Made by a program: the position numbers and the translations under genes. From NCBI RefSeq assembly GCF_000832305.1, contig NZ_CP010537.1, positions 2,542,001 to 2,606,000 of the forward strand: a stretch of DNA of 64,000 bases. The letters are read 5' to 3'. Under the pieces are notes generated by a model, which was not told where the DNA came from, did not search any database, and worked only from the letters and a program-made list of their open reading frames with translations. Position 1 is the stretch's first letter; every line of letters starts with the position of its first letter. Origin of the DNA: Cupriavidus basilensis. GTDB taxonomy: Bacteria; Pseudomonadota; Gammaproteobacteria; Burkholderiales; Burkholderiaceae. This document shows, in pieces, positions 32,397 to 48,633 of the stretch.

Positions 32397-35300
32397 ATGA
32401 ACAAAAATATCCATCGCCTGGTTTTCAACGCTGCGCGCGGCATGCTGGTCGCAGCCCCCGAACATGCCGCGGGGCGCGGCAAGGGCCGCCAGGGCAACGC
32501 CGGGCGCGGCGGCCAGGGCTCGGTGCTCGTGCCCGCTTTCGTGCCAGCATTCGTGCCGGTGCTATGGCTCACCGCGTTGACAGCCTCGATGATGGGCTTG
32601 CCGGTGTTGCTGGACCAATCGGCGCACGCGCAATCCCTGCCGATTCAGGTGGACAAGCAAGTGCCGGGCCAGCGTCCGGTGGTGGGCGTGGCGGCCAACG
32701 GCGTGCCGGTCGTCAACATCCCCCCGCCCAGCCGTAACGGCGGCACCAGCGTGAGTCATTTCATTCAGTACAACGTCGGCCCGTCCGGCGTTGTACTGAA
32801 TAACAGCGGGGCCAACAGCCAGACGCGGATTGCGGGCTGGGTCCAGGGAAACACCATGCTCGGCAACGGGCACGCCAGCAACATCGTGGTCCAGGTCACG
32901 CAGCCGAACCCCTCCCGATTGCTTGGCGCGCAAGAAATCGCCGGGAACCGCGCCAATCTGATCCTGGCCAATCCGGCGGGGTTGCATTGCTCGGGCTGCG
33001 GGGCGATCAACGCGGACCGCTTCACGCTTTCAACCGGACGTCCGGTGTTCGGCGCCGATGGCAGCCTGGCCGGCTTCGACGTGCGGGGCGGCAACATCGG
33101 CATCGACGGACAAGGCTTGTCCAGCCCGCAGGCGCAGGTCGATCTGCTGGCGCGCTCGATCCAGGTCAATGCGCAGCTGTGGGCCACGCACCTGAATGTG
33201 GTCGCGGGTGCCAACCAGGTCGGCTACGAAACCCTGAATGCCGCCGCGCAGGCGGGCAACGGCCCCGCCCCGCAGTTCGCGCTCGACGCCTCGGCGCTGA
33301 GCGCCATGTACAGCGGGGCGGTCAGATTGATCGGCACCGAACGCGGTGTCGGCTTTCATCTCGGCGGCGGCGTCACCGCCCGCTCCGGCGACATCGTGGT
33401 GGACAACAACGGCGACGTGCGTATCGTGCCAGGCGGCCGCCTGCAAGCCGAGGGCAGCGCCTCCCTCGCCGGCGCCAGCATCGACAACGCGGGCACCATC
33501 ACCACGCGCGGCGGCATTGCCGCGGCCACGCCGGGAGCACTGAGCAACAGCGGCACGCTGGCCGCCGGCACCGATCTGCTGGCCCGGGCCGAGCGCATCG
33601 CCAACAGCGGCACCATCGGCGCGGGCGTCGATGCCAACGCCAGCGTGACCGGCGCGGGTACGGCCCATCTCGCCGCGCGCACGGCCATCCAATCCCATGG
33701 CACCATCGTGTCCGGCGCGAACACCAGGCTGTCGGCCCCCACGCTGGACCTGTCGAACGGCAAAGTCGTTGCGCACGACGCCGCCTATCTGTCGGCGGCG
33801 GGCGACATCCGCCACCAGGACGCGCGGCTCGAAGCCAATGCCGTACAGGTCGACGCCGGCGGCACCGTGGACAATCGCGGCGGCGCCATCGTCGTGGGCA
33901 CCCATGGCGGAGCCGTCCAGGGCGCAAACATCCTGAACCAGGATGGCGCCATCACCAGCAGCGGCACACTCGGCGTGGACGCGGCGCAGGCCGTGGACAA
34001 CACCGGCGGCACCATCGCCGGGACCCGCGCCACCACGGTCGCGGCTGCCGGCACCGTCAATCGCGGCGGCATGATCGCGTCGGTGCAAGACCAGCTACGG
34101 ATGACCGGCACGCTGGACAACACCAGCGGCAAGATCGTGGCAGGCGGCCCGCTGGACATGACCGGCGACAGCCTCGCCAACACTGGCGGCCAGGTCGCGT
34201 CGAACCGCGATGCAACGCTGCGCATCGCGGCCACCCTCGACAACACGGCGGGCTTCATCCATGCCGGTGGCACCCTGGACGCGCAGGCGGGCGCCATCCT
34301 CAACCGCGACACCCTGCACGGCACCGGCGCCGCCCCGAAGGGCATGGAGGGCGCCAGCGTCAGGCTGTCTGCCCATGCCATAGACAATGCCCAGGGCGCG
34401 CTGCGCGCCGACGCCTCGCTTGACGCCAATGCCGCGACGCTCGGCAACACCGGCGGCGAAGTCGCCTCCGGAGGCACGGCGCAGCTCGATGTGCAGGCCA
34501 TCACCAACACCGGTGGCCTGCTGGCAGCCAACCAGGCGCTGGGCATCAGGGGCAACAGCCTCACCGGGGATGGCTCACTGCAATCCCATACGGGCGACGT
34601 CACCGCGATCCTGCAAACCGATTTCCATAACACCGGCACGGTGACCGCCGCACGGGATCTCAACCTGCTGATCGAGGATGCCCAGGGCAATGCCACGAGC
34701 GATATCACCAATGCTGGCAAGCTGCTGGCGGGCCGCGACGCCGACGTCCACGGGCGCAACGTCACCAACGCGGGCGAGCTGTCCGGCCGGGCCTCCAGCA
34801 CCGTCCGCGCCGATGGGGCCGTGCTCAACAAAGGCCTCATCGACGGCGGCGCCGTGCGCATCCTGGCCGGCACCACCGTCACCAACATCGACCGCATCTA
34901 TGGCGACTCGGTGGCCATCGGCGCCGGCCAGCAACTCCTGAACGACATCAACGCCGCCACCGGCCAGGGGGCCGTGATCGCCTCGCGCAGCGGCGGCGTC
35001 GAGCTGGGCGCCCCGGAGATCGTCAACCGCGAGCACGCGCTGGTCTACTCGTCGCAAGACCTGAACGTGGGCCGCGCGCTGGATGCCAGCGGCAAGGCGA
35101 CCGGCCAGGCCGATGCGCTTACCAACGCGTCGGCCACCATCGAGGTGGCGGGCAGCGCCAACTTCAACGTTGCCGCCCTTGCCAACCGCAACGACCACTT
35201 CCGCACCGAGCGTACCGATACCGGGACCGTGCACGCGTTCTACTACCGGCTCGACGGCAGCGCCGAAAAAATCGACCCGAGCACCGCGATGCTCGTGCTG

Positions 35301-38300
35301 CCAACCGCTTCAGGCGCCATATATGGCCACATCGCCAGCCGCGGCGACGACCTGGCCTACCTCGGCGATGACGACTACAAGCGCCTGCTCCTGCCCTCGG
35401 CGCGGTACCCCTTCAGCGTGTTTGGCCCCCCGTTCGACTGGGCGCGCCAGGCCGATGGCACACCGGGACAGAGCGACAGCCGCTCATCCGGCCCAAACTG
35501 GCCCGTGGGCCTGGCAATGCTCCCGTTCGCGCCCGACGCGCATGGCAGCCTCGAAGCCGATCATTTCGTCTACAAGGCCGACGACCCGATCTGGGACAAA
35601 TTCGGGATGGCCCGGCCCGGCGCGCTGCCGCCCGTACCCTCCCCCTGCCCGGATGGATCGCCAGCGGCCTGCCAGACGCAATACCGGGCCGCACTGCTTG
35701 CCTACCATGCCGCAAAGGCTGCCAGCAAACCGCTTTACGAAGCCCTGAATGGCAAGATCCAGGCATTCAACAGCGACTATCAGGGCCGGCTGGTGAAGTC
35801 CTGGACCATCGAACGGCGCGAGACCCGCGTGCAGGACGAGGTTGTCGTCCACACCGATCCCGCCCGCATCCTGGTGGGCGGCAACGCCAGCTTCACTGGC
35901 GCGGTCACCAACGACAAGAGCCAGATTCTCGTTGGCGGCACGCTTGCTGCCGGTGGCGCAAGCGGCGGTGTCAACAACCTTGCGCACGATGCGATACGCA
36001 TCGAGGATACGACCGGCACCAGCCAATACACCCGCCCGTGCGGGCGCGACCGCTGCTACGACACCATGGGCGTGCCGGCGGTGCACCTGGAGATTCCGAC
36101 TCAGCTCGCCAAGGGTGAAGCGCTGGATTACCAGGTTGTGAACGGCACGGGCACGATCGTGGCGGACAAGACCGGCACCGGCCCGATCGCCACCGCGCCG
36201 ACCCTCACGCAGATCCCGCTCGGCACCGGGGCCGCGGGCCTGCTGGGCGGCGACGTCATCCGGGCCGTCTCGCCGTCGCTGGCGATGCCCGACAATGCGC
36301 TCTTCAAGATTCGCGGCGAGCCGGGCACGCCTTACCTGATCGAGACCGACCCGCGCTTCACCAACCAGCGCCAGTGGCTGTCCAGCGATGTCATGCTCAC
36401 GCAACTGGGCCAGGACCCCACCCACGTGCTCAAGCGCCTGGGCGACGGCTACTATGAAGCCCGCCTGGTGGCCGATGCCGTGATGCTGGGAACCGGCCAG
36501 CGCTTCGTGGGCGACTACACCGACAACGAGGCGCAATACAAGGCGCTGATGCAATCGGGCGTGGCGTTCGGCAAGCAGTTCCACCTCAACGTGGGCACCG
36601 CGCTGACGGCGGACCAGATGCGCGCACTCACCACCGACATCGTGTGGCTGGTCGAGAAGACGGTCACCCTGAAGGACGGCACCACCCAGCGCGTGCTGGT
36701 GCCGCAGGTCTACCTGAAGGTGCGCGCGGGCGACCTCAAGGGGGACGGCACCCTGATGGCCGCGCGCGATACCGTGATCCAGACCGATGGCGACGTGAAG
36801 AACACGGGCACCATCGCCAGCCGCAATGTGACGCTGATGGATGCCGCCAATATCCACAACAGCGGCGCGCTGTCGGCGAGCGTCATGGGGCTGAGCGCCA
36901 GGCAGGACATCAACAACCTCGCCGGCCATATCACGACGGGCCAGCTGGCGGCCATGGCAGGCCGCGACATCAACCTGACCACCACCACCGCCTCCGGGGC
37001 CGGCGGCAGCGGCGACCTCGCGGGCAGCCGCGCCGTGATCGCGGGCATCTCCAGCGTGGCGGCCGACAACGCCACCTTCGTGGCCGGGCGCGACATCAAC
37101 ACCAAGGCCGCGAACATCCAGGCCACCGGCAGCCTGGGCATGGCGGCGGGCCGCGACATCCACCTTGGCACGGTCGAGGTCAGCGAATCAGAACGCCTCT
37201 ACAAAGACGCAAAAAACAATGCGGCGGTATCGCGCAGCACGGAAATCGGCACGCAGGTCACGGCGGGCAAGAACACAACCCTGAGCGCCGGGCGCGACGT
37301 GAACGCCACCGCCGCATATGTGAGCGCGGACGGCGCGCTGGCCGTGGGCGCGGGACGTGACATCAACGTCAAGGCCGGTCAGGCATCGAGTTCCGTGCGC
37401 GACGAGCACGCCTACCAGGAAAGCGGCTTCCTGTCGAAAAAGTCCACCCACGCCATCGATGCCAACAGCCAGACCGAGGCGCTCGGCAGCACCTTCTCCG
37501 GCGACACCGTGGCCATGGCGGCAGGACGTGACCTGGCCGTCGCCGGCAGCACCGTGGCGGCCACGCACGACGTGAACCTCGGCGCGGGGCGCGACCTGAC
37601 CATCGGAACCACCGAGACCACCTCGTCCGCCCACACCTACAAGGAAGAGACCAAGTCAGGGTTCGGCGCCACCGGCTCCGGCCTCTCGTACGGCAAGCGC
37701 GCCCAGAAGGACACCACCAACGACAACGGCACGCGGCAAGTGGGGAGCCTGGTCGGCAGCACGGACGGCAGCGTGCGCATGAACGCGGGCAGCACCCTTA
37801 CCGTCACCGGCAGCGACCTGATCGCCAGGCAGGACATCACCGGCGTGGGCGCGGATGTCAACATCGAAGCCGCGCAGAACCGCCAGCACCACGACGAAAC
37901 CCACGAGGTCAAGCAAAGCGGCTTCACGCTGGGCGTGTCGGGGGGAGCCATCGGCGCGGCCATTGGCGCCGGAAACAAGATCAACGCGGCCAGTCAAAGC
38001 CAGGACGGCCGCGCGTCCGCGCTGTGGGGAATCGCCGCCGCGCGCGACATTGCCGACACCGGCAGCGCACTGGCGCAGGCCGGCGGCAACCCGCTGTCAG
38101 GCGCCGCCGTGACGCTCTCCTGGGGCACCAGCCAGAGCAAGCAGACCATGACGCAGGACGCCACCAGCCACAACGGCGCCAACGTATCGGCAGGCGGCAC
38201 CGTAGCCTTCGTCGCGACCGGCGTGGATGCCAACGGCAACCAGACGGCGGGCAACCTCAACATCACCGGCTCGAACATCGACGCCAACAAGGTCGCGCTG

Positions 38301-40430
38301 GGAGCCAGGCACGATATCAATATCGTCTCCGCCACCGACACCAACGAGAGCCACAGCACCAACAAGTCCAGCAGCGCCAGCGTCGGCGTATCGTATGGCC
38401 TTGGCCCCGACAACGCCGGCTTCGGCGTTTCGGCCTCCGCCTCCAAGGCGAAGGGCAACTCGGACAGCCGGGGCGTCTCGCAAACCAACAGCCATGTGAG
38501 CGGCCGCGAGTCCGTCACCCTCCTATCGGGTAACGACACCAACATCCTCGGCGCCACGCTCAGCGGCGGCAAGGTGATCGCAGACGTGGGCGGCAACCTG
38601 AACATCGCCAGCCGCCAGGACACCGAAGAAACGCGCGCCAGGCAGGAAAGCATAAGCGGCGGCTTCAGCATCAGCCAGGGCGGCGGGTCAGCCAGCGTCT
38701 CCGCATCCAAGGGCAAGGCCAGCGGCAGCTATGCCAACGTCAGCGAGCAGTCCGGCATCCATGCCGGCAAGGACGGCTTCGATCTCACCGTCAAGGGCAA
38801 TACCGACCTGAAAGGCGCAGTCATCGCCAGCGAGGCCGGCAAGGACAAGAACAACCTGACCACCGGCACGCTCACCTGGACCGACATCGCCAACCACTCG
38901 GACTACAGCGCGACTTCCGCAGGCCTCTCCGCAGGCGGGGCCTTTGGCGCACCCAGTGGCCAAAGCAACAGCGGCCAGGCCTCCGGCAAGAACACCGGCG
39001 GCATCAACCCGATGATTCCGCAGCACGAAAGCGGCAGCCAGGACGGACTCGCACGCAGCGCAATCGCCGAAGGCACCATCACCATCAACGACCAGGCCAG
39101 CCAGAAGCAAGACCTGGCCAGCCTGAAGCGCGACACCGCCGGCACCAACAGCACGGTCGGCAAGAACCCCGACCTGAACCAGGTACTGAACAAACAATCC
39201 GACATGATGGCCGCCGCCCAGGCCGCCGGCGAGGCGATAGCCAAGACCGTGGGCGACCTGGCCGGCGCCAAGGAGAAACAGGCCCGCGCGAATGCCAAAG
39301 CCGCCCGCGACGCCGGAGATACCCAACTGGAAAGCAAATACCTCGCCGACGCGCAGAACTGGGAGGAAGGCGGCAACTACCGCGCAGCGCTGCACGCCGC
39401 CGGCGGCGCGCTGGTTGCAGGACTCGGTGGCGGCAACGCGCTGGCCGGCGCCGCAGGCGCGGGCGTCTCGTCCCTGGCCGCGCCCAAGCTTCAGGCACTT
39501 GGCAATGCGGTGTCAGAGAGCATCGATACCGGCAACGCCGGGTTGAATGAAGCACTCGGCAACGTGGCGGCCAATATCGCAGCGGGTGGCGTTGGTGCCA
39601 TCGTGAGTGGTGGGTCTGGTGCGGCGACGGCGGCGAATGTGGATCGGTTCAATAGGCAGTTGCATCCGGATGAAAAAGCGAAGATCCTGGCGCAGGCAAA
39701 CGGGAACAAGGCTGAAGAGGACCGTCTAACCAAGGCTGCGTGCTATGTTGTGCAATGCTGGGCTGAATACTCGGTCGGCAGTGCGGAATACAACAAAAAC
39801 TATGTAAGCTCGGTAGAGGCAAGTGGCCTAACAACCGAGATTCAGTGGGTGAAGCTACAAAAGCAAGCCGGCCTGTTCGACTACACTCTGGCTCAGCGCG
39901 TCGGCGATGCCGTGAAGAGCGATCCGATTGGCGTTGCCAAGGATGGATTGAAGGCCGTAACTGGTGCCGTGACCGCACTGACAGGCGGCACCATCTGCGG
40001 CACTAGTCTAGTAGGCTGTGCTGCAGGTGGGCCCATGGCAGCCTTTGGGACGAGCGATGCTGTCGAAGGCGTAACCGGGTTGACCAATGCAATGCTGGGA
40101 TATCGATCAGGTGGCTTCAATCCCATCAAATATGGGCTGAATGAGGTAATGCCCGTCTGGGGGAATACCGCGTATGACGGACTAAATCTCACCTTCAATC
40201 TATTGGCGATGCGCGCTCAAGTTCCTCTAAAATTAGGCTTGGCGGATGGGCTAGCCCGCCCCAGTTCTATCTTCGGCGCTACGACCTCTAAATTTAATAA
40301 CCCAAAGTTAGTTCCAATTATCAATTGGTCACTGCCCAACGGGACCGCACAAAATGCATTACTAATGGGGGCTGGGGCTAAGACCATTGGCCTAGTTAAT
40401 GATGTTAACAACGCTCGACCTGAAAAATGA
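32397..40430 (+). CDS. cdiA: CdiA/BcpA-type contact-dependent inhibition protein (TpsA filament with toxin tip)
   Basis: This 2677-residue two-partner-secretion exoprotein starts with an extended signal peptide (MNKNIHRLVFNAARGMLVAA, signal end near QSAHAQ, residue 77). The TPS transport domain follows (NRANLILANPAGLHCSGCGA, about residue 185). Next are long FHA-type beta-helical repeats, a Tyr-rich non-repetitive middle (HAFYYRLDGS, DDLAYLGDDDYKRLLL), more FHA repeats with ESGFLSKKS-type modules, and a pretoxin region. From about residue 2416 (DRFNRQLHPDEKAKIL) the variable C-terminal toxin begins: KAACYVVQCWAEYS, hydrophobic Gly/Ala segments, then NEVMPVWGNTAYDGLNLTF. The toxin tip does not match a nuclease I know and looks membrane-active. 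The start at 32397 fits the ESPR motif. The stop overlaps cdiI (ATGA). CdiB is encoded at 46071. Confidence 0.92.
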   Translation: MNKNIHRLVFNAARGMLVAAPEHAAGRGKGRQGNAGRGGQGSVLVPAFVPAFVPVLWLTALTASMMGLPVLLDQSAHAQSLPIQVDKQVPGQRPVVGVAANGVPVVNIPPPSRNGGTSVSHFIQYNVGPSGVVLNNSGANSQTRIAGWVQGNTMLGNGHASNIVVQVTQPNPSRLLGAQEIAGNRANLILANPAGLHCSGCGAINADRFTLSTGRPVFGADGSLAGFDVRGGNIGIDGQGLSSPQAQVDLLARSIQVNAQLWATHLNVVAGANQVGYETLNAAAQAGNGPAPQFALDASALSAMYSGAVRLIGTERGVGFHLGGGVTARSGDIVVDNNGDVRIVPGGRLQAEGSASLAGASIDNAGTITTRGGIAAATPGALSNSGTLAAGTDLLARAERIANSGTIGAGVDANASVTGAGTAHLAARTAIQSHGTIVSGANTRLSAPTLDLSNGKVVAHDAAYLSAAGDIRHQDARLEANAVQVDAGGTVDNRGGAIVVGTHGGAVQGANILNQDGAITSSGTLGVDAAQAVDNTGGTIAGTRATTVAAAGTVNRGGMIASVQDQLRMTGTLDNTSGKIVAGGPLDMTGDSLANTGGQVASNRDATLRIAATLDNTAGFIHAGGTLDAQAGAILNRDTLHGTGAAPKGMEGASVRLSAHAIDNAQGALRADASLDANAATLGNTGGEVASGGTAQLDVQAITNTGGLLAANQALGIRGNSLTGDGSLQSHTGDVTAILQTDFHNTGTVTAARDLNLLIEDAQGNATSDITNAGKLLAGRDADVHGRNVTNAGELSGRASSTVRADGAVLNKGLIDGGAVRILAGTTVTNIDRIYGDSVAIGAGQQLLNDINAATGQGAVIASRSGGVELGAPEIVNREHALVYSSQDLNVGRALDASGKATGQADALTNASATIEVAGSANFNVAALANRNDHFRTERTDTGTVHAFYYRLDGSAEKIDPSTAMLVLPTASGAIYGHIASRGDDLAYLGDDDYKRLLLPSARYPFSVFGPPFDWARQADGTPGQSDSRSSGPNWPVGLAMLPFAPDAHGSLEADHFVYKADDPIWDKFGMARPGALPPVPSPCPDGSPAACQTQYRAALLAYHAAKAASKPLYEALNGKIQAFNSDYQGRLVKSWTIERRETRVQDEVVVHTDPARILVGGNASFTGAVTNDKSQILVGGTLAAGGASGGVNNLAHDAIRIEDTTGTSQYTRPCGRDRCYDTMGVPAVHLEIPTQLAKGEALDYQVVNGTGTIVADKTGTGPIATAPTLTQIPLGTGAAGLLGGDVIRAVSPSLAMPDNALFKIRGEPGTPYLIETDPRFTNQRQWLSSDVMLTQLGQDPTHVLKRLGDGYYEARLVADAVMLGTGQRFVGDYTDNEAQYKALMQSGVAFGKQFHLNVGTALTADQMRALTTDIVWLVEKTVTLKDGTTQRVLVPQVYLKVRAGDLKGDGTLMAARDTVIQTDGDVKNTGTIASRNVTLMDAANIHNSGALSASVMGLSARQDINNLAGHITTGQLAAMAGRDINLTTTTASGAGGSGDLAGSRAVIAGISSVAADNATFVAGRDINTKAANIQATGSLGMAAGRDIHLGTVEVSESERLYKDAKNNAAVSRSTEIGTQVTAGKNTTLSAGRDVNATAAYVSADGALAVGAGRDINVKAGQASSSVRDEHAYQESGFLSKKSTHAIDANSQTEALGSTFSGDTVAMAAGRDLAVAGSTVAATHDVNLGAGRDLTIGTTETTSSAHTYKEETKSGFGATGSGLSYGKRAQKDTTNDNGTRQVGSLVGSTDGSVRMNAGSTLTVTGSDLIARQDITGVGADVNIEAAQNRQHHDETHEVKQSGFTLGVSGGAIGAAIGAGNKINAASQSQDGRASALWGIAAARDIADTGSALAQAGGNPLSGAAVTLSWGTSQSKQTMTQDATSHNGANVSAGGTVAFVATGVDANGNQTAGNLNITGSNIDANKVALGARHDINIVSATDTNESHSTNKSSSASVGVSYGLGPDNAGFGVSASASKAKGNSDSRGVSQTNSHVSGRESVTLLSGNDTNILGATLSGGKVIADVGGNLNIASRQDTEETRARQESISGGFSISQGGGSASVSASKGKASGSYANVSEQSGIHAGKDGFDLTVKGNTDLKGAVIASEAGKDKNNLTTGTLTWTDIANHSDYSATSAGLSAGGAFGAPSGQSNSGQASGKNTGGINPMIPQHESGSQDGLARSAIAEGTITINDQASQKQDLASLKRDTAGTNSTVGKNPDLNQVLNKQSDMMAAAQAAGEAIAKTVGDLAGAKEKQARANAKAARDAGDTQLESKYLADAQNWEEGGNYRAALHAAGGALVAGLGGGNALAGAAGAGVSSLAAPKLQALGNAVSESIDTGNAGLNEALGNVAANIAAGGVGAIVSGGSGAATAANVDRFNRQLHPDEKAKILAQANGNKAEEDRLTKAACYVVQCWAEYSVGSAEYNKNYVSSVEASGLTTEIQWVKLQKQAGLFDYTLAQRVGDAVKSDPIGVAKDGLKAVTGAVTALTGGTICGTSLVGCAAGGPMAAFGTSDAVEGVTGLTNAMLGYRSGGFNPIKYGLNEVMPVWGNTAYDGLNLTFNLLAMRAQVPLKLGLADGLARPSSIFGATTSKFNNPKLVPIINWSLPNGTAQNALLMGAGAKTIGLVNDVNNARPEK
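38412..38768 (+). repeat. cdiA internal segment duplicated downstream (parent copy)
   Basis: This part of cdiA, encoding ASASKAKGNSDSRGVSQTNS through ESISGGFSISQGGGSAS, recurs almost base for base at 45201-45541 and in diverged form at 41944-42106. The 45201 copy carries a short in-frame deletion where the parent reads AAGGGCAAGGCC. Such donor/acceptor identity is a substrate for recombination between cdiA and the downstream cassettes. Confidence 0.85.
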
Positions 40431-40681
40431 ATTGGCGGACGATATCCAATTTTCTTCACGACTCGATCATCCTTGGTCTGACAATAGTCGCATCAGGGGC
40501 ATTCTATTCTTTTCTCATTCTGTGGGTATGTTTGAAGACCATCGGCCTCGATGATCAGCAAAATCAGATCAGGATTGGCGTGATCTTCATGTCCATCTAT
40601 TCGATATGGGGGATAATCTATCTCCCGAAGCCATTGCGTAAGGCAGGGTTGCTGTGTGGGGTCTTTGAGAAGAGAAATTGA
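40427..40681 (+). CDS. cdiI: candidate CdiI immunity protein, small inner-membrane protein
   Basis: This 84-residue protein has two predicted membrane segments (SIILGLTIVASGAFYSFLIL and IGVIFMSIYSIWGIIYL). Its ATG overlaps the cdiA stop codon as ATGA, the coupling expected for a CDI immunity gene. A membrane immunity protein suggests that the cognate toxin acts on or in the inner membrane. I do not recognise the family. Base composition is markedly more AT-rich than flanking genes, as is typical of exchanged toxin-immunity cassettes. Confidence 0.78.
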   Translation: MNWRTISNFLHDSIILGLTIVASGAFYSFLILWVCLKTIGLDDQQNQIRIGVIFMSIYSIWGIIYLPKPLRKAGLLCGVFEKRN

Positions 40682-40713
40682 AATTAACTAGATTGTGGCC
40701 TCGCCACTAAAAA

Positions 40714-41685
40714 GATCGGTTCAATCGGTAGTTGCATCCGGATGAACAGAAGTGGATCAAGGCCAAGGCTTTCGCAAAGCAACAAGGTATCTCCGAATCG
40801 GACGCAGAAATGCGCCTTGCGCAGCAGGGATTCCGGCAAGTCCAAGCGGGTGTAGGTGGCGAGGAGGATGCTGGCGCGCGCGCGTTTCTCAGTCAGGCAC
40901 ATGGAATGCTGCCAGCAGATGGTGCAAGTGGGCCGGGCTACATGTTCTATACACCCCCGTCGCAGAAGAACGATGCAAGGATGTACAGTAAGGCATTGGG
41001 TGATTCAGCCGCTTTCTACTACACCAATGGCCTCAGGCAACCGGGAGCTATTCAAGCCGCAACCGCGGGGGCAATGAGCGATGCCGAGAGAAAAAAACTA
41101 GCTGGTGCCGTCGTCAATGTAGTTGGCGGTTCAGCGCTGCTGGCAACAGGGCCCGCTATCGCGGCAACCGTTCCCGGCTTAGTGACAAGTACCGTAACTG
41201 CCTGCACGATCAACCCGACCGCATGTACGTCAGCCGCAGGAATTGGCGGTATTGTGAGTGGCTCGATGGATATGGCAGGACAGCTCTTCCTGACTGGAAA
41301 TATTCGACCAGGACAAACAGCGATGGCAACGGTCAGTGGTGCAATTTTTACACCGCTAGGCATGAATGCTGGAGCGTACGGCAATGCCGTATTGGGTAGC
41401 GTTAATTCCATAGCAAATGCTCAGTTTCAGAACATACTCTATGGAGATACGAATAGCCTATTTGGTGCCGCAATAATTGGTTACGGCTTCGGATCATTTG
41501 GCGCCAATGTCGGGAGTCTCACTCAAAAAAGTGCAACATCGATATTTCCAATTCATGTTAACTCACGCGTCCCAGCTCTACTTCAGAAGCCAAGTACGAC
41601 GGCCCCTCTTATCGGAGTTGGAGTTGGCAACGCGGCTCAGGGTTTTGGATCACCCGTTACTCCTTTTCAGAATCAAAAAAAATGA
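40714..41685 (+). pseudogene. displaced orphan CdiA C-terminus (pretoxin stub plus toxin domain)
   Basis: The block begins with GAT CGG TTC AAT CGG TAG TTG CAT CCG GAT GAA. This copies the cdiA junction encoding DRFNRQLHPDE, but the Gln codon is a TAG stop. The frame then stays open for 317 residues from TTG 40732 to 41685. It lacks a signal, a filament and a proper start, so it is an orphan cdiA-CT that could replace the native tip by recombination at the shared junction. The toxin part is rich in hydrophobic Gly/Ala stretches (AVVNVVGGSALLATGPAIAA, SAAGIGGIVSGSMDMAG, FGAAIIGYGFGSFGANVG), again hinting at membrane action. Its stop overlaps the next immunity gene (ATGA). Whether TTG 40732 is ever used as a start is unknown. 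Confidence 0.82.
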
Positions 41686-41900
41686 AAACAATTAAGAAAA
41701 TATGGATTGCATTTCAAGGCATTTTTTCACCCTGGATTATGTTGATTCCACTCACAATATTTAAACTACTCGGTTTCAACGTCACACTTAAGCACTATTA
41801 TCTTGTTTCTGCAATATGCCTAATTTGGACAATAATATTCGCACTTTGGTTCTTATACTTTTGGAAGAAAACTCGACAGATTGACAAGACAAATTCTTGA
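41682..41900 (+). CDS. orphan CDI immunity protein, two-TM type (copy A)
   Basis: This 72-residue, two-helix membrane protein carries GIFSPWIMLIPLTIFKLLGF and YYLVSAICLIWTIIFALWFL, then KKTRQIDKTNS. The ATG overlaps the stop of the orphan toxin upstream (ATGA), so it is very probably that toxin's immunity partner. It is closely related to the protein at 44886-45125 (shared PWIMLIPL, KLLGFNVT and KTRQI) and to a truncated third copy at 44586-44771. The coding sequence is very AT-rich compared with the window. Confidence 0.8.
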   Translation: MKTIKKIWIAFQGIFSPWIMLIPLTIFKLLGFNVTLKHYYLVSAICLIWTIIFALWFLYFWKKTRQIDKTNS

Positions 41901-41943
41901 GCTTCAAACATCATAGATTCCCTTCGAGAATTCGCGAGCCGAA

Positions 41944-42106
41944 ATGAAAGAGTCCACAGTCGACGTATCGCACGGCATTGACAACGGCGACGCCGGCTTC
42001 GGCGTTTCGGCTTCAGCTTTCCAGGCAAAGCACAATTCGAGCATCGAAGACATCTCGCATACCAACAGCCACATGGCCAGCCGGGAGTCCGCCACCTTTG
42101 CGTCGA
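41944..42106 (+). repeat. cdiA-derived fragment with MKESTVDVSHGIDNG leader (copy 1, diverged)
   Basis: The translated block starts MKESTVDVSHGIDNGDAGFG, continues VSASAFQAKHNSSIEDISHT and ends NSHMASRESATF. The second half is a decayed copy of CdiA (GFGVSASASKAKGNSDSRGV). The first 45 bases are nearly identical to 45153-45197. Both copies stand just after a two-TM immunity gene. The open frame runs on into the following lipoprotein gene, but similarity to CdiA stops near 42106. Confidence 0.8.
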
Positions 42107-42216
42107 GTATCCGGCACCTCCATCCCCGGTCTTCGCAGAATAGACGCGATACCACCGGGGCCGCCGCCCTTCTTACCGCCATCAGGCGTGCAAACATCAA
42201 CCTATCAAGGACTCTC

Positions 42217-42831
42217 GTGAACAAGAACCACGTACCATTGTCGGGAAAAGCCCTCGCCCTGGCTGTGCTCACCGCGCTGCTGACTACGGCCTGCTCAATT
42301 CTCCCTCAACCAACACACAGCGTCACCGTCGCTACCCCAACGTACGATCCCAGCGTTTCTGCACGCCTCCGATTCCTTTCCGGCAATGGCACCGGCAGTG
42401 CGGCTTTCCGGCCCGGCGAGTCTTGCTACAAGGATATCTACCTGCAGGATGAAAAACGCGTCGATGTCAACGATGGCTTTCTGGCGTCGTGGAAGTACTC
42501 ATCCAACAGCGTAACGATCGGTATGCCTCAAAGCCCGCGCCCTTACATGCGCGTCGACGGCCTTGCCTTCAAGGACTTCATCAAGGAATACGTCGTCCCG
42601 GCAGCAACGCCCGTCACAGTGAGGTTGTCGCTCAACCCGCAGTCTTCCTCCTGTACGCCGCCAGCGGTTACGTTCGTTCCCGAGCCAGGCAGGGATTATG
42701 ACGTGTTCATGCAAACCGCCGGCAACCGCTGTTGGGTTGCCGCCAGCCGCATCGATAGCCACGGCGCGGATGAGTCCGTCCGCCTGGAATTAGCGCAGAA
42801 GTGTCCGACTGCGCCCGCCCCCAACAATTGA
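42217..42831 (+). CDS. predicted lipoprotein of the CDI locus
   Basis: This 204-residue protein has a lipoprotein signal: positively charged start, hydrophobic core ALALAVLTALL, and lipobox LTTAC with Cys26. I chose the GTG at 42217 because AAGGA stands about 6 nt upstream and the signal begins there. The open frame itself extends upstream into a cdiA-like scrap. The mature part contains four further Cys residues (ESCYKDIYLQDEKRVDV, SSSCTPPAVTFVPEPG, AGNRCWVAAS, ELAQKCP). No family is recognised. A lipoprotein between A/I and B genes recalls BcpO of Burkholderia bcpAIOB loci, though that protein is smaller, so homology is not claimed. Confidence 0.75.
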   Translation: MNKNHVPLSGKALALAVLTALLTTACSILPQPTHSVTVATPTYDPSVSARLRFLSGNGTGSAAFRPGESCYKDIYLQDEKRVDVNDGFLASWKYSSNSVTIGMPQSPRPYMRVDGLAFKDFIKEYVVPAATPVTVRLSLNPQSSSCTPPAVTFVPEPGRDYDVFMQTAGNRCWVAASRIDSHGADESVRLELAQKCPTAPAPNN

Positions 42832-42858
42832 CCCACAAAAACAGGAGTAGTGATCACC

Positions 42859-43740
42859 ATGAATCGCATGCGCACCTTGCACCTCGTCGCCGTCACCCTG
42901 CTGAGCCTCGCGGCAATTCCCGCCATGGCAGTGGAAAACTATCTACTCGCCGCTCACAAACAGCGCCTGGAGAAAGCACGCGTTGAAGAGTCAGCGGCCA
43001 AGTCGACCTGGGATAAGGCATTCGCCCTGCGCCAGCAAGCTGCGGAGCTGGACTCAATGGGCAAATCGGCGGAAGCGCTTACCCTCATCGACCGGGCGCT
43101 GAGCTCGGTCGGATCTGAAAATGCTAAGGACTTCATCGCTACCAAGGCCAGTATTCTGTTCAGCATGAATGACCCGCGAGGTGCCTTGGCATTGCTGGCG
43201 CCGCATCTGGAGGCGACACGAGAGTACGCCGCGCGCCAGGCTGCCGCCGGGCGAAACCTCGCGCTCGGAACGTTCACGGAGGGCTTTGTGACAGCCACTT
43301 TTGCGCAGATCCAGCTTGAGCAGTGGCGTGACGCAATTGCAACGCTGGCCAATGCGGAGGCACCGCTTGAAGGGCCGAGCTTCTATGCCTACCGAAGCCT
43401 CGTCTATCGCTACATCATGAGCCGGGCCAAAGACGACACGCTGGTGAACCCTCAATTGGAGGATATGGCGACGTACTACGCACAGAACGACAAGGGTCAC
43501 TACGGTGCGTTGCTGCGGATGTGGCAGGGAGAGGACACGCGGAAAGAAGCGGCGGCGCTGATCGGACAGATGTCCGGCTCCGAGCAGCAGGAAGCGTTTG
43601 CGGAAGCTTTGTTCCATAGCGCGGCCTATGCAAAGTTTGTCAAAGGCGATGCAGCAAGCGCACGAACTATGCTGGACAAACTCAATCAGGTCGCTCCATA
43701 CGGCAGTATCGAGTGGATATATGGACAGAGGGTGCTGTAA
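42859..43740 (+). CDS. exported helical-repeat (TPR-like) protein, function unknown
   Basis: This 293-residue protein starts with a signal peptide (MRTLHLVAVTLLSLAAIPAM, cleaved after AMA). The mature part is alpha-helical with TPR-like pairs (RQQAAELDSMGKSAEALTLI, DRALSSVGSENAKDFI, SMNDPRGALALLAPHLEATR, IQLEQWRDAIATLANAEAPL). Such repeats usually mediate protein contacts in the periplasm. It follows the lipoprotein by 27 bp and may be co-transcribed. AGGAG lies 12 nt before ATG 42859; a GTG at 42850 sits too close to it. GC content is normal for the window, unlike the toxin cassettes on either side. Confidence 0.78.
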   Translation: MNRMRTLHLVAVTLLSLAAIPAMAVENYLLAAHKQRLEKARVEESAAKSTWDKAFALRQQAAELDSMGKSAEALTLIDRALSSVGSENAKDFIATKASILFSMNDPRGALALLAPHLEATREYAARQAAAGRNLALGTFTEGFVTATFAQIQLEQWRDAIATLANAEAPLEGPSFYAYRSLVYRYIMSRAKDDTLVNPQLEDMATYYAQNDKGHYGALLRMWQGEDTRKEAAALIGQMSGSEQQEAFAEALFHSAAYAKFVKGDAASARTMLDKLNQVAPYGSIEWIYGQRVL

Positions 43741-43756
43741 TCATCAACGCGGATCG

Positions 43757-44032
43757 GTGAGCCTATGCGTCGACTACGGACAAACCTACCGCGCCATTCG
43801 CCCACCCAATGCGTCAGCGGCAAGTGACTTGATGCAATCCAGGGACGTTGTTGCATACATCGAGATTGAAAGCACGGGCTCCTCGGTGAGGCTGAACTCA
43901 GGCGATACGGACGGACTGCGGACATGCAAGTTCCATGCGGTTGAGTACGCCTGCACGGATGGCCAAAGCAACAGCGGCTCAATTACGCAAGGAGGTGGGT
44001 CTTTCGTGCCCGGAAAGGAAATAAAAAAATGA
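43757..44032 (+). CDS. small hypothetical protein ending at an ATGA junction (possible toxin remnant)
   Basis: The frame gives about 91 residues from GTG 43757 (SLCVDYGQTYRAIRPPNASA ... DLMQSRDVVAYIEIESTGSS ... ACTDGQSNSGSITQGG) and remains open further back into the 3' end of the previous gene. I do not recognise it. Near its end an 18-bp word GGCCAAAGCAACAGCGGC is identical to cdiA 38958-38975, so part is cdiA-derived. Its stop overlaps the start of a small membrane protein (ATGA), as at the other toxin-immunity junctions. It may be a scrambled toxin stub rather than an expressed gene. Confidence 0.45.
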   Translation: MSLCVDYGQTYRAIRPPNASAASDLMQSRDVVAYIEIESTGSSVRLNSGDTDGLRTCKFHAVEYACTDGQSNSGSITQGGGSFVPGKEIKK

Positions 44033-44340
44033 GCAAAAAACTGGATGAACTATTGCGAGAACGAACATGGCGCGGCGTTATCAGCAGAGCTGTTTGCACA
44101 ATCTCTCTCGTCGTACTTGTTGCATGGCTTCCGGAAATTGCAACCTTCGGCGAAGCCATAGTTTTTAAACGGCAGTTTATTATAAACCAAAACAAGTATT
44201 CAATTATAAAGATAATTTCGTGTCTATTTTTAATAATTATTATTACTCGCGATGCCCTCACCATCAAACATATACTCAAAAATCGCGCAAAGGAAAAACA
44301 ACCCACAAAATCAATCAAAAATATCTCCAATGTGGATTGA
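44029..44340 (+). CDS. small membrane protein, candidate orphan immunity protein
   Basis: This 103-residue protein has two hydrophobic segments (AVCTISLVVLVAWLPEIATF and IIKIISCLFLIIIITRDALT) and a Lys-rich tail. Its ATG overlaps the preceding stop (ATGA). AAGGAAAT lies just upstream. Position, size and AT-rich composition match CDI immunity genes, but it is unrelated in sequence to cdiI at 40427 and to the copy A/B pair. Confidence 0.6.
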   Translation: MSKKLDELLRERTWRGVISRAVCTISLVVLVAWLPEIATFGEAIVFKRQFIINQNKYSIIKIISCLFLIIIITRDALTIKHILKNRAKEKQPTKSIKNISNVD

Positions 44341-44620
44341 TGACAAATTCGATAGTCCCGGCTGGCAAGGAATTGCCGTTTTCATCGCCACGTGCTTTTC
44401 GATACTAATAGCAGTACGCTGGCTACGAGACGCGGCGATCTGGATCTCAGAAAATATTACAAATACTCACACAAAAATAACGGATGAGCAAAATAATGAC
44501 TCCATTATACCGATTACGATTCTCATTAAAAATGAGCAAAGAACTTTTTATAACTGCCGCGAAATGACTTCTTTCCCCTTGGGCAATGCAAATACCACTC
44601 ATCTCCCTCTGGATTCTTAA
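44330..44620 (+). CDS. small membrane protein, hypothetical
   Basis: This 96-residue frame starts at ATG 44330, inside the end of the previous gene (WIDDKFDSPGWQGIAVF). It has one clear membrane helix (GIAVFIATCFSILIAVRWLR) followed by a polar tail rich in Asn and Thr. It is possibly a second immunity or accessory protein of the same cassette. No family is recognised. The AT-rich region makes chance frames more likely, so expression is uncertain. Confidence 0.45.
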   Translation: MWIDDKFDSPGWQGIAVFIATCFSILIAVRWLRDAAIWISENITNTHTKITDEQNNDSIIPITILIKNEQRTFYNCREMTSFPLGNANTTHLPLDS

Positions 44621-44771
44621 ATTCAATGTTACATCACGACATTTTATTGCAATGACCATCTTCTGCTCCATATGGTCCATCGGCATAGCAATTTGGCACT
44701 GCATATTGTTTATGAAAAGATCACAATCAATAACTCGTGATCTGGAGAGTCATCAAAAGAAGAGGATTTAG
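44586..44771 (+). pseudogene. truncated paralogue of the two-TM immunity protein
   Basis: This 61-residue frame reads LWILKFNVTSRHFIAMTIFC, then SIWSIGIAIWHCILFMKRSQ. It aligns with the second half of copy A (KLLGFNVTLKHYYLVSAICL, IWTIIFALWFLYFWKKTRQ). The first membrane segment is missing, and the frame overlaps the tail of the previous one, so it looks like a decayed third immunity copy. Confidence 0.65.
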
Positions 44772-44817
44772 TTGATACCGGTATTTGAAAAAGTCAAATT
44801 CCGAAACAAATAACTGG

Positions 44818-44889
44818 ATGAAAGGTGGCGACTACCGCGCAGCGCTGCACACCGCAGCCGACGCTTTCGTTGCTGACCCGGTTAAATGA
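44818..44889 (+). pseudogene. 24-codon cdiA scrap ending at an ATGA junction
   Basis: The frame reads MKGGDYRAALHTAADAFVAD PVK then TGA. GDYRAALHTAA copies CdiA GNYRAALHAAG (39373-39405). The stop overlaps the ATG of the immunity gene at 44886. Almost all of the toxin open reading frame has been deleted, leaving only a start-proximal scrap and the coupling junction. Confidence 0.7.
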
Positions 44890-45125
44890 AGAAAATATTA
44901 CAGAGAATTTTGTGGGCAGCCCAGGGAATTACCGCTCCTTGGATCATGCTAATACCGCTGGCAATTCTTAAACTACTAGGGTTTAACGTCACAAAAAAAC
45001 ACTTTTATGCCGTTTCAACCCTTTGCCTTCTATGGATGCTGGCAATTTCAGCTTGGTATCTATACGCGTGGATAAAAACACGGCAGATTGAAAGGAAAAA
45101 TAAGATTGACAGACAAGAACCATAG
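44886..45125 (+). CDS. orphan CDI immunity protein, two-TM type (copy B)
   Basis: This 79-residue membrane protein has segments GITAPWIMLIPLAILKLLGF and FYAVSTLCLLWMLAISAWYL, then WIKTRQIERKNKIDRQEP. It is an obvious paralogue of the 72-residue protein at 41682, differing mainly in the N-terminal and second helices. Its toxin partner has been deleted to a scrap (44818-44889), so it may give resistance to neighbours using the matching toxin. It is AT-rich like the other cassettes. The MKESTV fragment follows 27 bp downstream, as after copy A. Confidence 0.78.
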   Translation: MKKILQRILWAAQGITAPWIMLIPLAILKLLGFNVTKKHFYAVSTLCLLWMLAISAWYLYAWIKTRQIERKNKIDRQEP

Positions 45126-45152
45126 CTTCTGTTCGTGAATTAGCGAACCGAG

Positions 45153-45671
45153 ATGAAAGAGTCCACAGTCGACGTATCGCACGGCATTGACAACGGCAAC
45201 GCCGGCGTCGGCGTCTCGGCCTCCGCCTCCAAGGCGAAGGGCAACTCGGACAGCCGGGGCGTCTCGCAAACCAACAGCCATGTGAGCGGCCGCGAGTCCG
45301 TCACCCTTCTATCGGGTAACGATACCAACATCCTCGGTGCCACGCTCAGCGGCGGCAAGGTAATCGCAGACGTGGGCGGCAACCTGAACATCGCCAGCCG
45401 CCAGGACACCGAAGAAACGCGCGCCAGGCAGGAAAGCATCAGCGGCGGCTTCAGCATCAGCCAGGGCGGCGGGTCCGCCAGCTTCTCCGCATCCAACGGC
45501 AGCTATGCCAACGTCAGTGAGCAGGCCGGCATCCATGCCGAACGCGCAACCTTGACCAGGCCACGAAAACATACGCCGCCCGCCGGAGCAAGCCACCTAC
45601 CAGCAACGCCTCCCCCACAGCCACAGCCTATCCAGAACCTGGCCAAGTTCAGCGCTGAATCGATCGATTAG
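45153..45671 (+). pseudogene. cdiA-derived fragment with MKESTVDVSHGIDNG leader (copy 2, nearly identical to cdiA)
   Basis: The translation starts MKESTVDVSHGIDNGNAGVG, then runs through ASASKAKGNSDSRGVSQTNS and HVSGRESVTLLSGNDTNIL to ESISGGFSISQGGGSASFSA. The part 45201-45541 is almost identical to cdiA 38412-38768. After HAERATL the frame leaves cdiA similarity and ends in a Pro-rich, probably meaningless tail. There is no signal peptide. It is a leftover of an ancestral cdiA duplication or a recombination donor. Confidence 0.82.
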
Positions 45672-45782
45672 GAAATTTCTCCCCTCATTTTCGTATTTGT
45701 CCGATTTCAATCTGCGCGAAAGCTCGGTATCGTCCGTCTGGCCTTGGCGTAGTCCAGCCTCACACATGCGGCAGCGCGCTTG
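45663..45782 (+). repeat. leader repeat, copy 2 (upstream of cdiB)
   Basis: This copy matches 32251-32370 in front of cdiA (shared GGAAATTTC, CCTCATTTTCGTA, TGTCCGATTTCAATC, GCTCGGTATCGT, TAGTCCAGCCTC). It overlaps the end of the cdiA fragment and lies about 290 bp before cdiB. It may serve as the cdiB promoter or be a scar of a lost second cdiA. Confidence 0.85.
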
Positions 45783-46070
45783 CGCGTGGGTGGCATTGGC
45801 AACGAGGCCAGCGGCGCTTGCGTCAACCATGCCATCTGAAATCTGGAGTGGAGAAGATGATCCGATTTATTTTTTCACACCGGCATCGCCTGTCGATGTT
45901 GCGAAAACTTGGTCTGTTCATCCTCGCTCGCAGAGCCTCAATGCGCGATGTTCTCTGTGCACTCGATTGCACACCACTCGATTGCACACCTCATGAACAT
46001 ATAGCGATCTAGCCCGACCGGATCATCCGCCTCCGCATCGAATTGCCTGACATGTAAGCCGCGTCAATCC
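45672..46070. promoter_or_regulatory. region between the last cdiA fragment and cdiB
   Basis: This contains leader repeat copy 2 and then about 290 bp without a convincing gene. Two short direct repeats of CACTCGATTGCACACC stand at about 45960-45990. Short frames here have no family resemblance. It probably carries the cdiB promoter and 5' untranslated region. Confidence 0.55.
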
Positions 46071-47822
46071 ATGCCGATGAACTTCCGCAACGCGCGCCGC
46101 AAGGCGCGTGGCGTACCCCCTTTTGCCTCGCTCATCCTGACGCTGCCCGCACTGGCGGTTGCCCAGGCCCTGCCTGCATTCCCGCACACGGTCCCGCCTG
46201 TCACCCCGAACGCCGCCATAGAGCGCCGCCAGGAACAGCGGCAGGACGCTGCGCGCGAGCGTGCCCTGGCCCGTCCTGATGTGCTGACGACCTCCCCCGC
46301 CGACGCCGCCAACGCTGGTATCGCGGGACCGCTGATCCTGCCTGCCGAGTCGCCCTGCTTGCGCATCGGGACGGTGCGCTGGGAGGGGGCCGAGGACTTT
46401 GCGTGGCTCCAGGCCGAGGCGGGCATCCTGCCCGCTCAATGCGTTGGCGGCAAGGGGCTGGAGGCCATCCAGGACTATTTTTCGGCGCGGCTGCTCGCCC
46501 AGGGCTACATGACCACGCGCGTGGTGATCCCGGAGCAGAATCTCGCCGGCGGCGAGTTGCGCCTGCGCGTAGTGGCCGGACGCCTGTCTGGTGTCAAGGC
46601 CGCTGGCGCGCCCGGCTGGTGGCGCATGGCCTTGCCCACCGGCCCCGGCGGGCTGGTGAACCAGCGCGACCTTGACCAGGGCACGGAGAACATGCGCCGG
46701 CTGCAGGGGCAGGCCGATGCCGGCATCGACCTGGTGCCCGGCGAGAACCCTGGTGACACGGAACTGATCATCAGGCCGGGCACCGGCAAGCGCTGGCATG
46801 CGCTCGTGACGGGCGATAACGCCGGACTGGACAACACCGGGCGCTACCAGATGGGCGGCACGCTGACGGTGGACTCGCCACTGTTCCTCTACGACAGCCT
46901 CACCGTCTCCGGCAGCACCAATGCCAATGCCGGCAACGGCGCGGCGGGGACCCGCTCTTCGGCCATCAGCTACAGCATTCCCTTCGGTTACTGGAGCGCT
47001 TTCTTCAGCGCCAACCAGTCGCGCTACCACCAGACGGTGGCGGGTTTCGAGAGCGACATCGTCTACGGCGGGCGCAGCACGCAGATCGAGGCTGGACTTG
47101 GCTACGTGCCGTGGCGCAACGCGTCGGGCAAGACGAGCCTGTACGCCAAGGTGTTCCGCAAGACCGCCAGCTCCACCCTGGACGGCATCGACATCGCCGT
47201 GCAGCACCGGGACTTCGTCGGCTTCGAGGCCGGCGCCGCGCACCGCCAGTATCTCGGCAGCACGGTGCTGGATGCCGGCGCGGCATGGCGCGCGTCGCTG
47301 CCCGCGCACTCCAGGTCGCCTGGCTTTGTGCTGGGCGAGCCCGGCTGGGATGGCAAGTCGGAGATCGTGCTGGCGAATGCCGGCCTGATGGTGCCATTCC
47401 AGGTCGCCGGGGAGCGCTTGCGCTACCAGGGCAGCCTGCGCATGCAGTACGCCCGCACCCGCATCTTGCCGTCCGACTACTTCGTCATCGGCAACCGCTA
47501 CTCGGTGCGCGGCTTCGATGAGCAACTCACCCTTGCCGCCGAGAACGGCATCACCTGGCGCAACGACCTGGCCTGGCAACTTGGCAATACGGGGCAGGAG
47601 GCCTTCGTGGGCTTGGACATGGGCCATGTCAGCGGCCCCTCCGCCGGGTTCCTGGTGGGCCAGACGCTGATGGGCGCGGTGATCGGGGCGCGCGGACGCT
47701 GGGCCATGGGTGGCTACGCTGCCCTGACCTACGAGGTGACGCTCGGCAGGCCGCTCAGCAAGCCTGAGTTCTTCCGCACGCACCGGCCCGGTATCGCGGC
47801 GCAGATCGGCATTGAGTTTTAG
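46071..47822 (+). CDS. cdiB: CdiB/TpsB outer-membrane transporter (two-partner secretion, ShlB/FhaC family)
   Basis: This 583-residue Omp85-type transporter exports CdiA. After a signal peptide (FASLILTLPALAVA) it has the plug/linker region (ERRQEQRQDAARERALARPD). POTRA domains follow: CLRIGTVRWEGAEDFAWLQA; CVGGKGLEAIQDYFSARLLA; QGYMTTRVVIPEQNLAGGEL; RLRVVAGRLSGVKA. The 16-strand barrel carries the conserved loop motif SVRGFDEQ and ends with aromatic-terminated IAAQIGIEF. It lies downstream of cdiA and the immunity array, the order seen in Burkholderia bcpAIOB loci rather than the E. coli cdiBAI order. The ATG is at 46071 or 46077. Confidence 0.93.
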   Translation: MPMNFRNARRKARGVPPFASLILTLPALAVAQALPAFPHTVPPVTPNAAIERRQEQRQDAARERALARPDVLTTSPADAANAGIAGPLILPAESPCLRIGTVRWEGAEDFAWLQAEAGILPAQCVGGKGLEAIQDYFSARLLAQGYMTTRVVIPEQNLAGGELRLRVVAGRLSGVKAAGAPGWWRMALPTGPGGLVNQRDLDQGTENMRRLQGQADAGIDLVPGENPGDTELIIRPGTGKRWHALVTGDNAGLDNTGRYQMGGTLTVDSPLFLYDSLTVSGSTNANAGNGAAGTRSSAISYSIPFGYWSAFFSANQSRYHQTVAGFESDIVYGGRSTQIEAGLGYVPWRNASGKTSLYAKVFRKTASSTLDGIDIAVQHRDFVGFEAGAAHRQYLGSTVLDAGAAWRASLPAHSRSPGFVLGEPGWDGKSEIVLANAGLMVPFQVAGERLRYQGSLRMQYARTRILPSDYFVIGNRYSVRGFDEQLTLAAENGITWRNDLAWQLGNTGQEAFVGLDMGHVSGPSAGFLVGQTLMGAVIGARGRWAMGGYAALTYEVTLGRPLSKPEFFRTHRPGIAAQIGIEF

Positions 47823-48603: not shown

Positions 48604-48633
48604 ACACCAACATCCAGAGAAAGAGGAGAAACC

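What the first reader, a model, noticed from the sequence alone, without database searches (positions are those of the whole stretch)
40427..45125. Array of CDI toxin/immunity junctions, all with the same ATGA overlap
Four times in 4.7 kb the stop of a toxin or toxin scrap overlaps the ATG of a small AT-rich membrane-protein gene: 40427-40430 (cdiA/cdiI), 41682-41685, 44029-44032 and 44886-44889. The upstream partner ranges from the full toxin through an orphan C-terminus to a 24-codon scrap. The coupling point persists while the toxin decays. This suggests serial capture of new toxins with old immunity genes retained as a resistance bank, and each immunity protein appears membrane-embedded.
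Basis: partly seen in the sequence, partly recalled or inferred. Interest (0 to 1): 0.85.

Follow-up and report, generated by a model that had tools for sequence, protein, structure and literature searches.

The report
Retired toxin-immunity genes inside CDI operon
A bacterium keeps a row of leftover antidote genes, some still attached to scraps of the toxins they probably once neutralised, inside its contact-killing operon; such rows are a known kind of locus, found here in a gene order where an earlier survey reported none.

Summary
Upstream partners are the CdiA toxin tip, an open orphan tip, an 18-codon toxin tail behind an insertion-sequence remnant, and a cdiA scrap whose toxin content cannot be shown. 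The array is larger than described: two more immunity relics lie at 44330-44620 (weak) and about 44534-44771. The four open small genes are AT-rich (32-45% G+C; window 66.5%) with two predicted membrane spans each. The pairing recurs elsewhere: the orphan tip plus gene 41682 match the tip and next gene of a 2868-aa CdiA frame in Ralstonia sp. SET104; relatives of 40427 occur in 17 other genomes of 249, mostly behind a relative of the main CdiA tip. In these toxin families the stop/start overlap is common, and in 5 of 7 decayed relatives the toxin's last codons survive, probably because they hold the immunity gene's ribosome-binding site. Best reading: an orphan cdiA-CT/cdiI array made by tip replacement plus local duplication, between cdiI and cdiB. 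Known kind, though Anderson et al. 2012 reported none in Burkholderia-type systems. Protection is untested. By-catch: elsewhere cassettes of the same toxin families are separated by a primase/XerC element joined at the same boundary motif.

The parts
32397..40430 (+). cdiA (TpsA exoprotein, 2677 aa)
   Evidence: ESPR, TPS and Fil_haemagg_2 by Pfam
39642..40430 (+). CdiA C-terminal tip (family A), starting at boundary motif DRFNRQLHPDE
   Evidence: 51-58% identical over nearly the whole tip in 17 of the 24 non-window loci
40427..40681 (+). I1, likely cognate immunity gene, 84 aa, two predicted membrane spans
   Evidence: matches in 18 of 249 family genomes, own genome included; ATGA overlap
40714..40769 (+). 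copy of the cdiA boundary motif, with an in-frame stop
   Evidence: 79% to 39642-39697; stop shown
40732..41685 (+). orphan toxin tip (family B), 317 codons, no secretion domain
   Evidence: matches in 21 of 249 family genomes, own included; 54% to the tip of a 2868-aa frame in G157, which is Ralstonia sp. SET104 (identical tip)
41682..41900 (+). I2, orphan immunity gene of family B, 72 aa
   Evidence: a 29% relative follows the matching tip with ATGA overlap in L050/L115
41905..42129 (+). spacer plus cdiA fragment (fragment from 41959)
   Evidence: 73% to cdiA nt 5986-6155; a like stretch follows I6 (family D1)
42217..42831 (+). lipoprotein-like gene, possible cargo
   Evidence: no Pfam or NCBIfam hit at E 1 or better; lipoprotein label by eye
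42850..43740 (+). TPR-like gene, possible cargo
   Evidence: 12 of 249 family genomes, own included; in 10 of 11 others within open frames of 486-650 aa; two of those looked lipoprotein-like at the N-terminus
43846..43965 (-). insertion-sequence remnant (transposase 3' end and element end)
   Evidence: dispersed repeat in 21 of 60 genus genomes, own included, 12 matches in G037; intact copy in L103 is DDE_Tnp_1_5/DDE_Tnp_1
43976..44032 (+). 18-codon toxin tail left behind the IS remnant
   Evidence: tail profile from 6 other genomes, E 1.1e-7, best of 1223 frames
44029..44340 (+). I3, orphan immunity gene of family C, 103 aa
   Evidence: profile of 5 non-window immunity proteins, E 1.6e-7; a single-sequence search of 249 genomes found only itself
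44330..44620 (+). weak candidate relic of a family C immunity gene
   Evidence: E 0.013, second-best frame; alignment A2
44534..44771 (+). broken family B immunity gene with an internal stop
   Evidence: 39% to I2 with 1 stop; open piece 44568-44768, E 7.3e-11
44801..44889 (+). cdiA pre-tip scrap whose frame ends in the I6 start
   Evidence: 77% to cdiA 39346-39418; frame
44886..45125 (+). I6, orphan immunity gene of family B, 79 aa
   Evidence: 59% to I2; E 2e-23 with a family B profile that includes I2
45168..45540 (+). cdiA fragment after I6
   Evidence: 92% to cdiA nt 5986-6370
46071..47822 (+). cdiB (TpsB transporter, 583 aa)
   Evidence: ShlB, POTRA_2, POTRA_3

Best explanation
This is an orphan cdiA-CT/cdiI array inside a contact-dependent inhibition operon of order cdiA-cdiI-array-cdiB. 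New toxin tips were joined to cdiA at the RFNRQLHPDE boundary and older tip/immunity pairs were pushed downstream. The displaced tips then decayed (stop codon, IS insertion, deletions) while small two-span membrane immunity genes stayed open, and one family was duplicated locally together with a flanking cdiA fragment. The immunity start overlaps the toxin stop and, in relatives, its ribosome-binding site usually lies in the toxin's last codons, so a decayed toxin keeps its tail as long as the immunity gene is used. Shown: the gene families, the recurrence of the pairs elsewhere, varied tips in related loci, the toxin tail at junction 3. Inferred: the order of events, transcription together with cdiB, membrane-acting toxins, and protection against neighbours.
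For: cdiA and cdiB are open and carry their domains. cdiA fragments recur through the array. Orphan tip and I2 match the tip and next gene of a 2868-aa CdiA frame with ATGA overlap. The main tip recurs at 51-58% in 17 of 24 loci. Overlap: 17 of 17 relatives of 40427 with 250 or more open codons upstream, copies within a genome not removed; 17 of 24 distinct orphan-tip-family loci with a tip of 250 or more codons and a membrane-type next gene (starts were picked nearest to -4, which favours the overlap). Toxin tail recognisable in 5 of 7 short-frame relatives; GGAG before the start in 14 of 17 and 5 of 7 (no background control run). Junction 3 tail E 1.1e-7, I3 E 1.6e-7. Different tips in eight related loci (by eye). 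I2/I6: dN 0.30, pS 0.73.
Against: Only I3 of the four window immunity genes has a Shine-Dalgarno-like match (AGGA); I1, I2 and I6 have none, so the ribosome-site argument comes from relatives. I2, I6 and their flanks look like duplicates. The profiles were built from sequences picked after the likeness was seen, and I3 alone found no relative in 249 genomes. Synonymous sites between I2 and I6 are saturated, so the low dN may be older than their orphan state. Promoter-like sites are no more than in shuffles (5 found, mean 4.1). Junction 4 has no shown toxin. Two relics show that immunity genes decay too. Of orphan-tip relatives with a non-membrane next gene, 2 of 6 have the overlap.
Confidence: 0.82

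Rival explanations
1. Junkyard: the array is passive debris of tandem duplication and IS activity at the 3' end of cdiA; the small genes are open only because the decay is recent, and they give no protection.
For: IS remnant, deletions, broken relics; I2/I6 and their flanks are paralogous; three of four starts lack a Shine-Dalgarno-like site.
Against: Four small genes are open although at junctions 3 and 4 the toxin is gone; I2/I6 differ far more at synonymous than at amino-acid-changing sites, though saturation weakens this.
Confidence: 0.25
2. The ATGA pattern is a start-codon artefact: genes whose second codon begins with A always show it, so only the first two junctions mean anything.
For: 25 of 90 ATGs in the stretch are ATGA; junction 4 has no shown toxin; the second codon of the 40427 family is nearly always Asn, which forces the A.
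Against: The toxin frame itself ends at the overlap in 17 of 17 long-frame relatives and at junction 3.
Confidence: 0.1
3. The small genes are not immunity genes but membrane parts of the secretion or lipoprotein system around them.
For: They lie beside a lipoprotein-like gene and cdiB.
Against: Their relatives directly follow toxin tips in other genera.
Confidence: 0.04

Closest known systems
Orphan cdiA-CT/cdiI modules (Poole et al. 2011, PMC3150448; passages read)
   Same: Tip fragments starting at a boundary motif, with a small immunity gene, some cut by mobile elements; orphan immunity protein produced in E. coli EC93; the idea of an immunity repertoire is stated there.
   Different: Here the array is between cdiI and cdiB; the boundary motif is RFNRQLHPDE, not VENN.
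Burkholderia-type bcpAIOB (Anderson et al. 2012, PMC3415462; passages read)
   Same: A-I-...-B gene order; bcpI starts within 11 bp of the bcpA stop in all strains but one, sometimes before it.
   Different: No NxxLYN motif and no BcpO-like gene found before cdiB. That paper searched for bcpA-CT/bcpI modules and found no evidence of them. A 2022 review (PMC9086364, passages read) says Burkholderia sometimes has them between cdiI and cdiB.
T6SS orphan immunity arrays in Vibrio cholerae (Kirchberger et al. 2017, PMC5361080; section 13 and passages read)
   Same: Sequential displacement of effectors with old immunity genes kept.
   Different: CDI, not T6SS; here part of the array looks duplicated, which that paper argues against for V. 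cholerae.
CdiA-CT o10 / CdiI o10 of E. coli EC869 (PMC7858069; passages read)
   Same: Immunity protein with two predicted spans; its toxin depolarises the target membrane.
   Different: Sequence relation not tested; membrane action of the present toxins is inference.

Membership tests
Orphan cdiA-CT/cdiI array | Linked to a complete cdiA and cdiB | tested here: met
Orphan cdiA-CT/cdiI array | Tip fragment without secretion domain, beginning at the boundary motif | tested here: met
   40714-40769 motif copy and 317-codon orphan tip
Orphan cdiA-CT/cdiI array | Tip followed by a small immunity-type gene | tested here: met
   Junctions 2 and 3; junction 4 has no shown tip
Orphan cdiA-CT/cdiI array | Orphan pair found fused to full-length cdiA in other bacteria | tested here: met
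   Ralstonia sp. SET104, frame of 2868 aa
Orphan cdiA-CT/cdiI array | Toxin inhibits growth and cognate immunity rescues | not testable with these tools
   Needs bench work
Burkholderia-type bcpAIOB | Gene order A-I-(O)-B | tested here: met
Burkholderia-type bcpAIOB | NxxLYN boundary motif | tested here: not met
   No N..LYN in CdiA; FNRQLHP at residue 2418
Burkholderia-type bcpAIOB | BcpO: small lipoprotein gene just before bcpB | tested here: not met
   No Met-started ORF of 50-120 aa with a lipobox in 45125-46070, + strand; other start codons not tried; the 204-aa lipoprotein-like gene at 42217 is not next to cdiB
Translationally coupled toxin/immunity pair | Toxin frame stop overlaps immunity start | tested here: met
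   Junctions 1-3; coupling itself cannot be tested here

The most novel reading that the evidence does not exclude
The boundary motif RFNRQ(L/I)H is a docking site for a plasmid-like primase/XerC element that carries tip/immunity cassettes. One crossover there would load a new tip onto cdiA and push the old tip and its immunity gene downstream. Such elements separate cassettes of the same two toxin families in a 65-kb array in another Burkholderiaceae genome; the window would be an old array of this kind that has lost the element. Against this for the window: 40400-46070 has no DNA match to the element, only to cdiA, tips and motif, and none of the ten window proteins scanned is a recombinase.
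Probability: 0.1. Interest if true: 0.8.

Novelty: new member of a known kind. Interest (0 to 1): 0.45.

Why it matters
Orphan toxin/immunity arrays are how bacteria are thought to change weapons without losing old protection. Here the array lies between cdiI and cdiB, in a gene order for which a specific 2012 search reported none, so tip displacement should not be excluded for that order. The common stop/start overlap offers a simple, testable reason why useless toxin tails persist: they carry the start region of the antidote gene.

Tried and rejected
Rejected: the ORF 43598-44032 as a toxin (mostly IS remnant). Rejected: the overlap as a rule of the locus (2 of 8 syntenic cdiA ends). Rejected: the lipoprotein-like/TPR-like genes as a toxin pair; most relatives of the second are longer single proteins. 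No result: Pfam and NCBIfam for the tips and small genes above their cut-offs; solved structures for both tips, two hits at E 0.25 and 0.56 for one and none for the other; promoter- and terminator-like sites no more than in shuffles; first genome-contig scan with I2 confirmed nothing. Structure prediction of the orphan tip did not run: the machine answered 'busy' each time, so membrane action of the toxins rests on the immunity proteins alone. Correction: the CdiA-tip query was one base out of frame; it was redone in frame and nothing here rests on the faulty query. Rows set aside: of 33 non-window matches, 29 had loci and 26 of these went into (L069, L073, L074 left out as short pieces), with all 31 loci: 57 loci, 12 exact duplicates, 45 distinct. 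Of the 45, 24 had a tip of 250 or more codons and a membrane-type next gene; 6 had such a tip and a non-membrane next gene (overlap in 2 of 6); the rest had broken or cut tips or no next gene found. Of ten syntenic loci fetched, L015 and L020 lack the cdiA-to-cdiB junction; L017 holds only the end of cdiA, and in L018 and L019 cdiA is in broken frames.
Full report
Setting. The window lies on contig C2 (3.9 Mb) of an 8.42-Mb genome in two contigs. The locus holds an open two-partner secretion pair: cdiA 32397-40430 and cdiB 46071-47822, with 5.6 kb between them.

Observation. ATGA occurs at 40427, 41682, 44029 and 44886. Because any gene starting ATGA carries a TGA in another frame, I asked in each case whether the frame that ends there is the toxin's. 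Junction 1: yes, full CdiA. Junction 2: yes, a 317-codon orphan tip. Junction 3: the long upstream ORF is mostly the end of an insertion sequence on the other strand, but its last 18 codons are a toxin tail. A profile of tails from six other genomes picks this frame first among 1223 window frames, E 1.1e-7, and the gene after it matches a profile of five immunity proteins that follow such tips elsewhere, E 1.6e-7. Both profiles were built after I had noticed the likeness, so the E-values are flattering; I3 as a single query found no relative in 249 genomes. Junction 4: the upstream scrap is a piece of cdiA from before the tip plus a few codons without a match; a toxin is not shown.

Anatomy. 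Pieces of cdiA recur through the array: the boundary motif at 40714, a fragment at 41959-42129 (73%), a scrap at 44812-44882 (79%) and a fragment at 45168-45540 (92%). The spacer and cdiA fragment after I2 are matched by those after I6. I2 and I6 are 59% identical and a third, broken copy lies at about 44534-44771. A weak relic of the I3 family lies at 44330-44620 (E 0.013). So six immunity genes or relics can be counted, in three families. Between I2 and I3 sit a lipoprotein-like and a TPR-like gene; relatives of the second mostly lie in longer open frames.

Pairing. The 40427 family occurs in 18 of 249 family genomes, own included. All 24 non-window hits were examined: 17 have 250 or more open codons upstream and all 17 end in an ATGA overlap (copies within one genome not removed; for L025 and L042 the start was moved two codons upstream to an in-frame ATG), and these 17 carry a tip 51-58% identical to the window's. 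Of the other 7, 5 keep a recognisable toxin tail (E 0.008 or better) and 2 do not. GGAG precedes the start in 14 of 17 and 5 of 7; no background control was run. The orphan tip occurs in 21 of 249 genomes, own included, and at 54% as the tip of a 2868-aa frame in G157, named as Ralstonia sp. SET104, where the next gene is an I2 relative (29%) with ATGA overlap. Over the loci, 17 of 24 distinct loci with a tip of 250 or more codons and a membrane-type next gene have a 4-nt overlap; the others start at 0, +1, +3, +6 or +12. With non-membrane next genes it is 2 of 6.

Tip replacement. Of ten related loci fetched, eight run from the end of cdiA into cdiB. Core and cdiB are alike; tips and small genes, compared by eye, differ, with L011/L013 and L018/L019 sharing the first part of the tip. 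None carries the window's whole tip; only partial matches to L011 and L014 were found. Junction types vary: L013 ATGA, L016 GTGA, L011 and L017 adjacent, L019 an 11-nt overlap, L012, L014 and L018 gapped or unclear. By eye, L016, L017 and L019 also hold extra small genes or a second tip.

Mechanism. The four open immunity proteins each have two predicted spans. By analogy with CdiI o10 of EC869, whose toxin depolarises membranes (PMC7858069, passages read), the toxins probably act on the inner membrane; this is inference. The overlap, and a ribosome-binding site inside the toxin's last codons, would explain why tails outlive toxins, but in the window only I3 has such a site. Growth of the array: joining of new tips at the boundary motif, as in published models (PMC3150448, PMC5361080), plus local duplication of the I2/I6 unit.

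What is known. Orphan arrays, their IS interruptions and the immunity-repertoire idea are in PMC3150448 (passages read). PMC3415462 (passages read) reports that a specific search found no orphan modules in bacteria with Burkholderia-type systems; PMC9086364 (passages read) says they sometimes occur between cdiI and cdiB. A search for papers with CdiA, immunity, overlap and translational coupling returned none. I therefore call this a new member of a known kind.

By-catch. While reading a relative's array I found a primase/XerC element that separates toxin cassettes there and in several other records; details under Noticed in passing. I found no trace of it in 40400-46070 of the window.

Noticed in passing
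L104-L107 (G196:C1:1785000-1858000, unnamed Burkholderiaceae genome): Between a cdiA-like and a cdiB-like gene, nine displaced tip cassettes follow the main tip at 7.0-7.3 kb spacing, about 65 kb in all. In the unit tested, the spacer encodes a CHC2/Toprim primase-like protein and an integrase-family recombinase. All nine begin with the same leader, joined in eight at RFNRQ(L/I)H, the motif that also starts the main tip, and in one at a degenerate form.
   Followed up: partly
L176 (NZ_CP155076.1), L177 (NZ_CP090650.1), L178 (NZ_CP139977.1), L184 (CP074295.1), G150, G083, G279: Related HTH-primase-XerC sets sit beside toxin/immunity cassettes of TPS exoproteins, an FG-GAP protein and, in G279, what looks like an Rhs core (motif recalled, not scanned). 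Of 14 contexts looked at, 9 show a toxin context by my reading; L185, L186, L190 are unclear, L188 shows none, L187 has no annotation; most of the 224 plasmid records matched were not looked at. The listings of three paper searches showed nothing on it.
   Followed up: partly
L189 (NZ_CP072857.1, Lonsdalea populi, 11.3-kb circular plasmid): A primase-XerC set on a small circular plasmid with two endonuclease tips preceded in frame by a piece like the Rhs core motif (motif recalled), and an NTF2-fold immunity gene: looks like a free circular form of the cassette element.
   Followed up: partly
window 47923-49664: CsgG, DUF4810 and GNA1162-like genes follow cdiB.
   Followed up: no
window 42850-43740 and L088 (G041:C10): A 47-residue piece of the TPR-like gene lies within 130 bases of another cdiB-like gene in G041.
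   Followed up: no
L020 (G050:C2): In one relative the cdiA and cdiB coding regions run into each other, apparently by a deletion.
   Followed up: no
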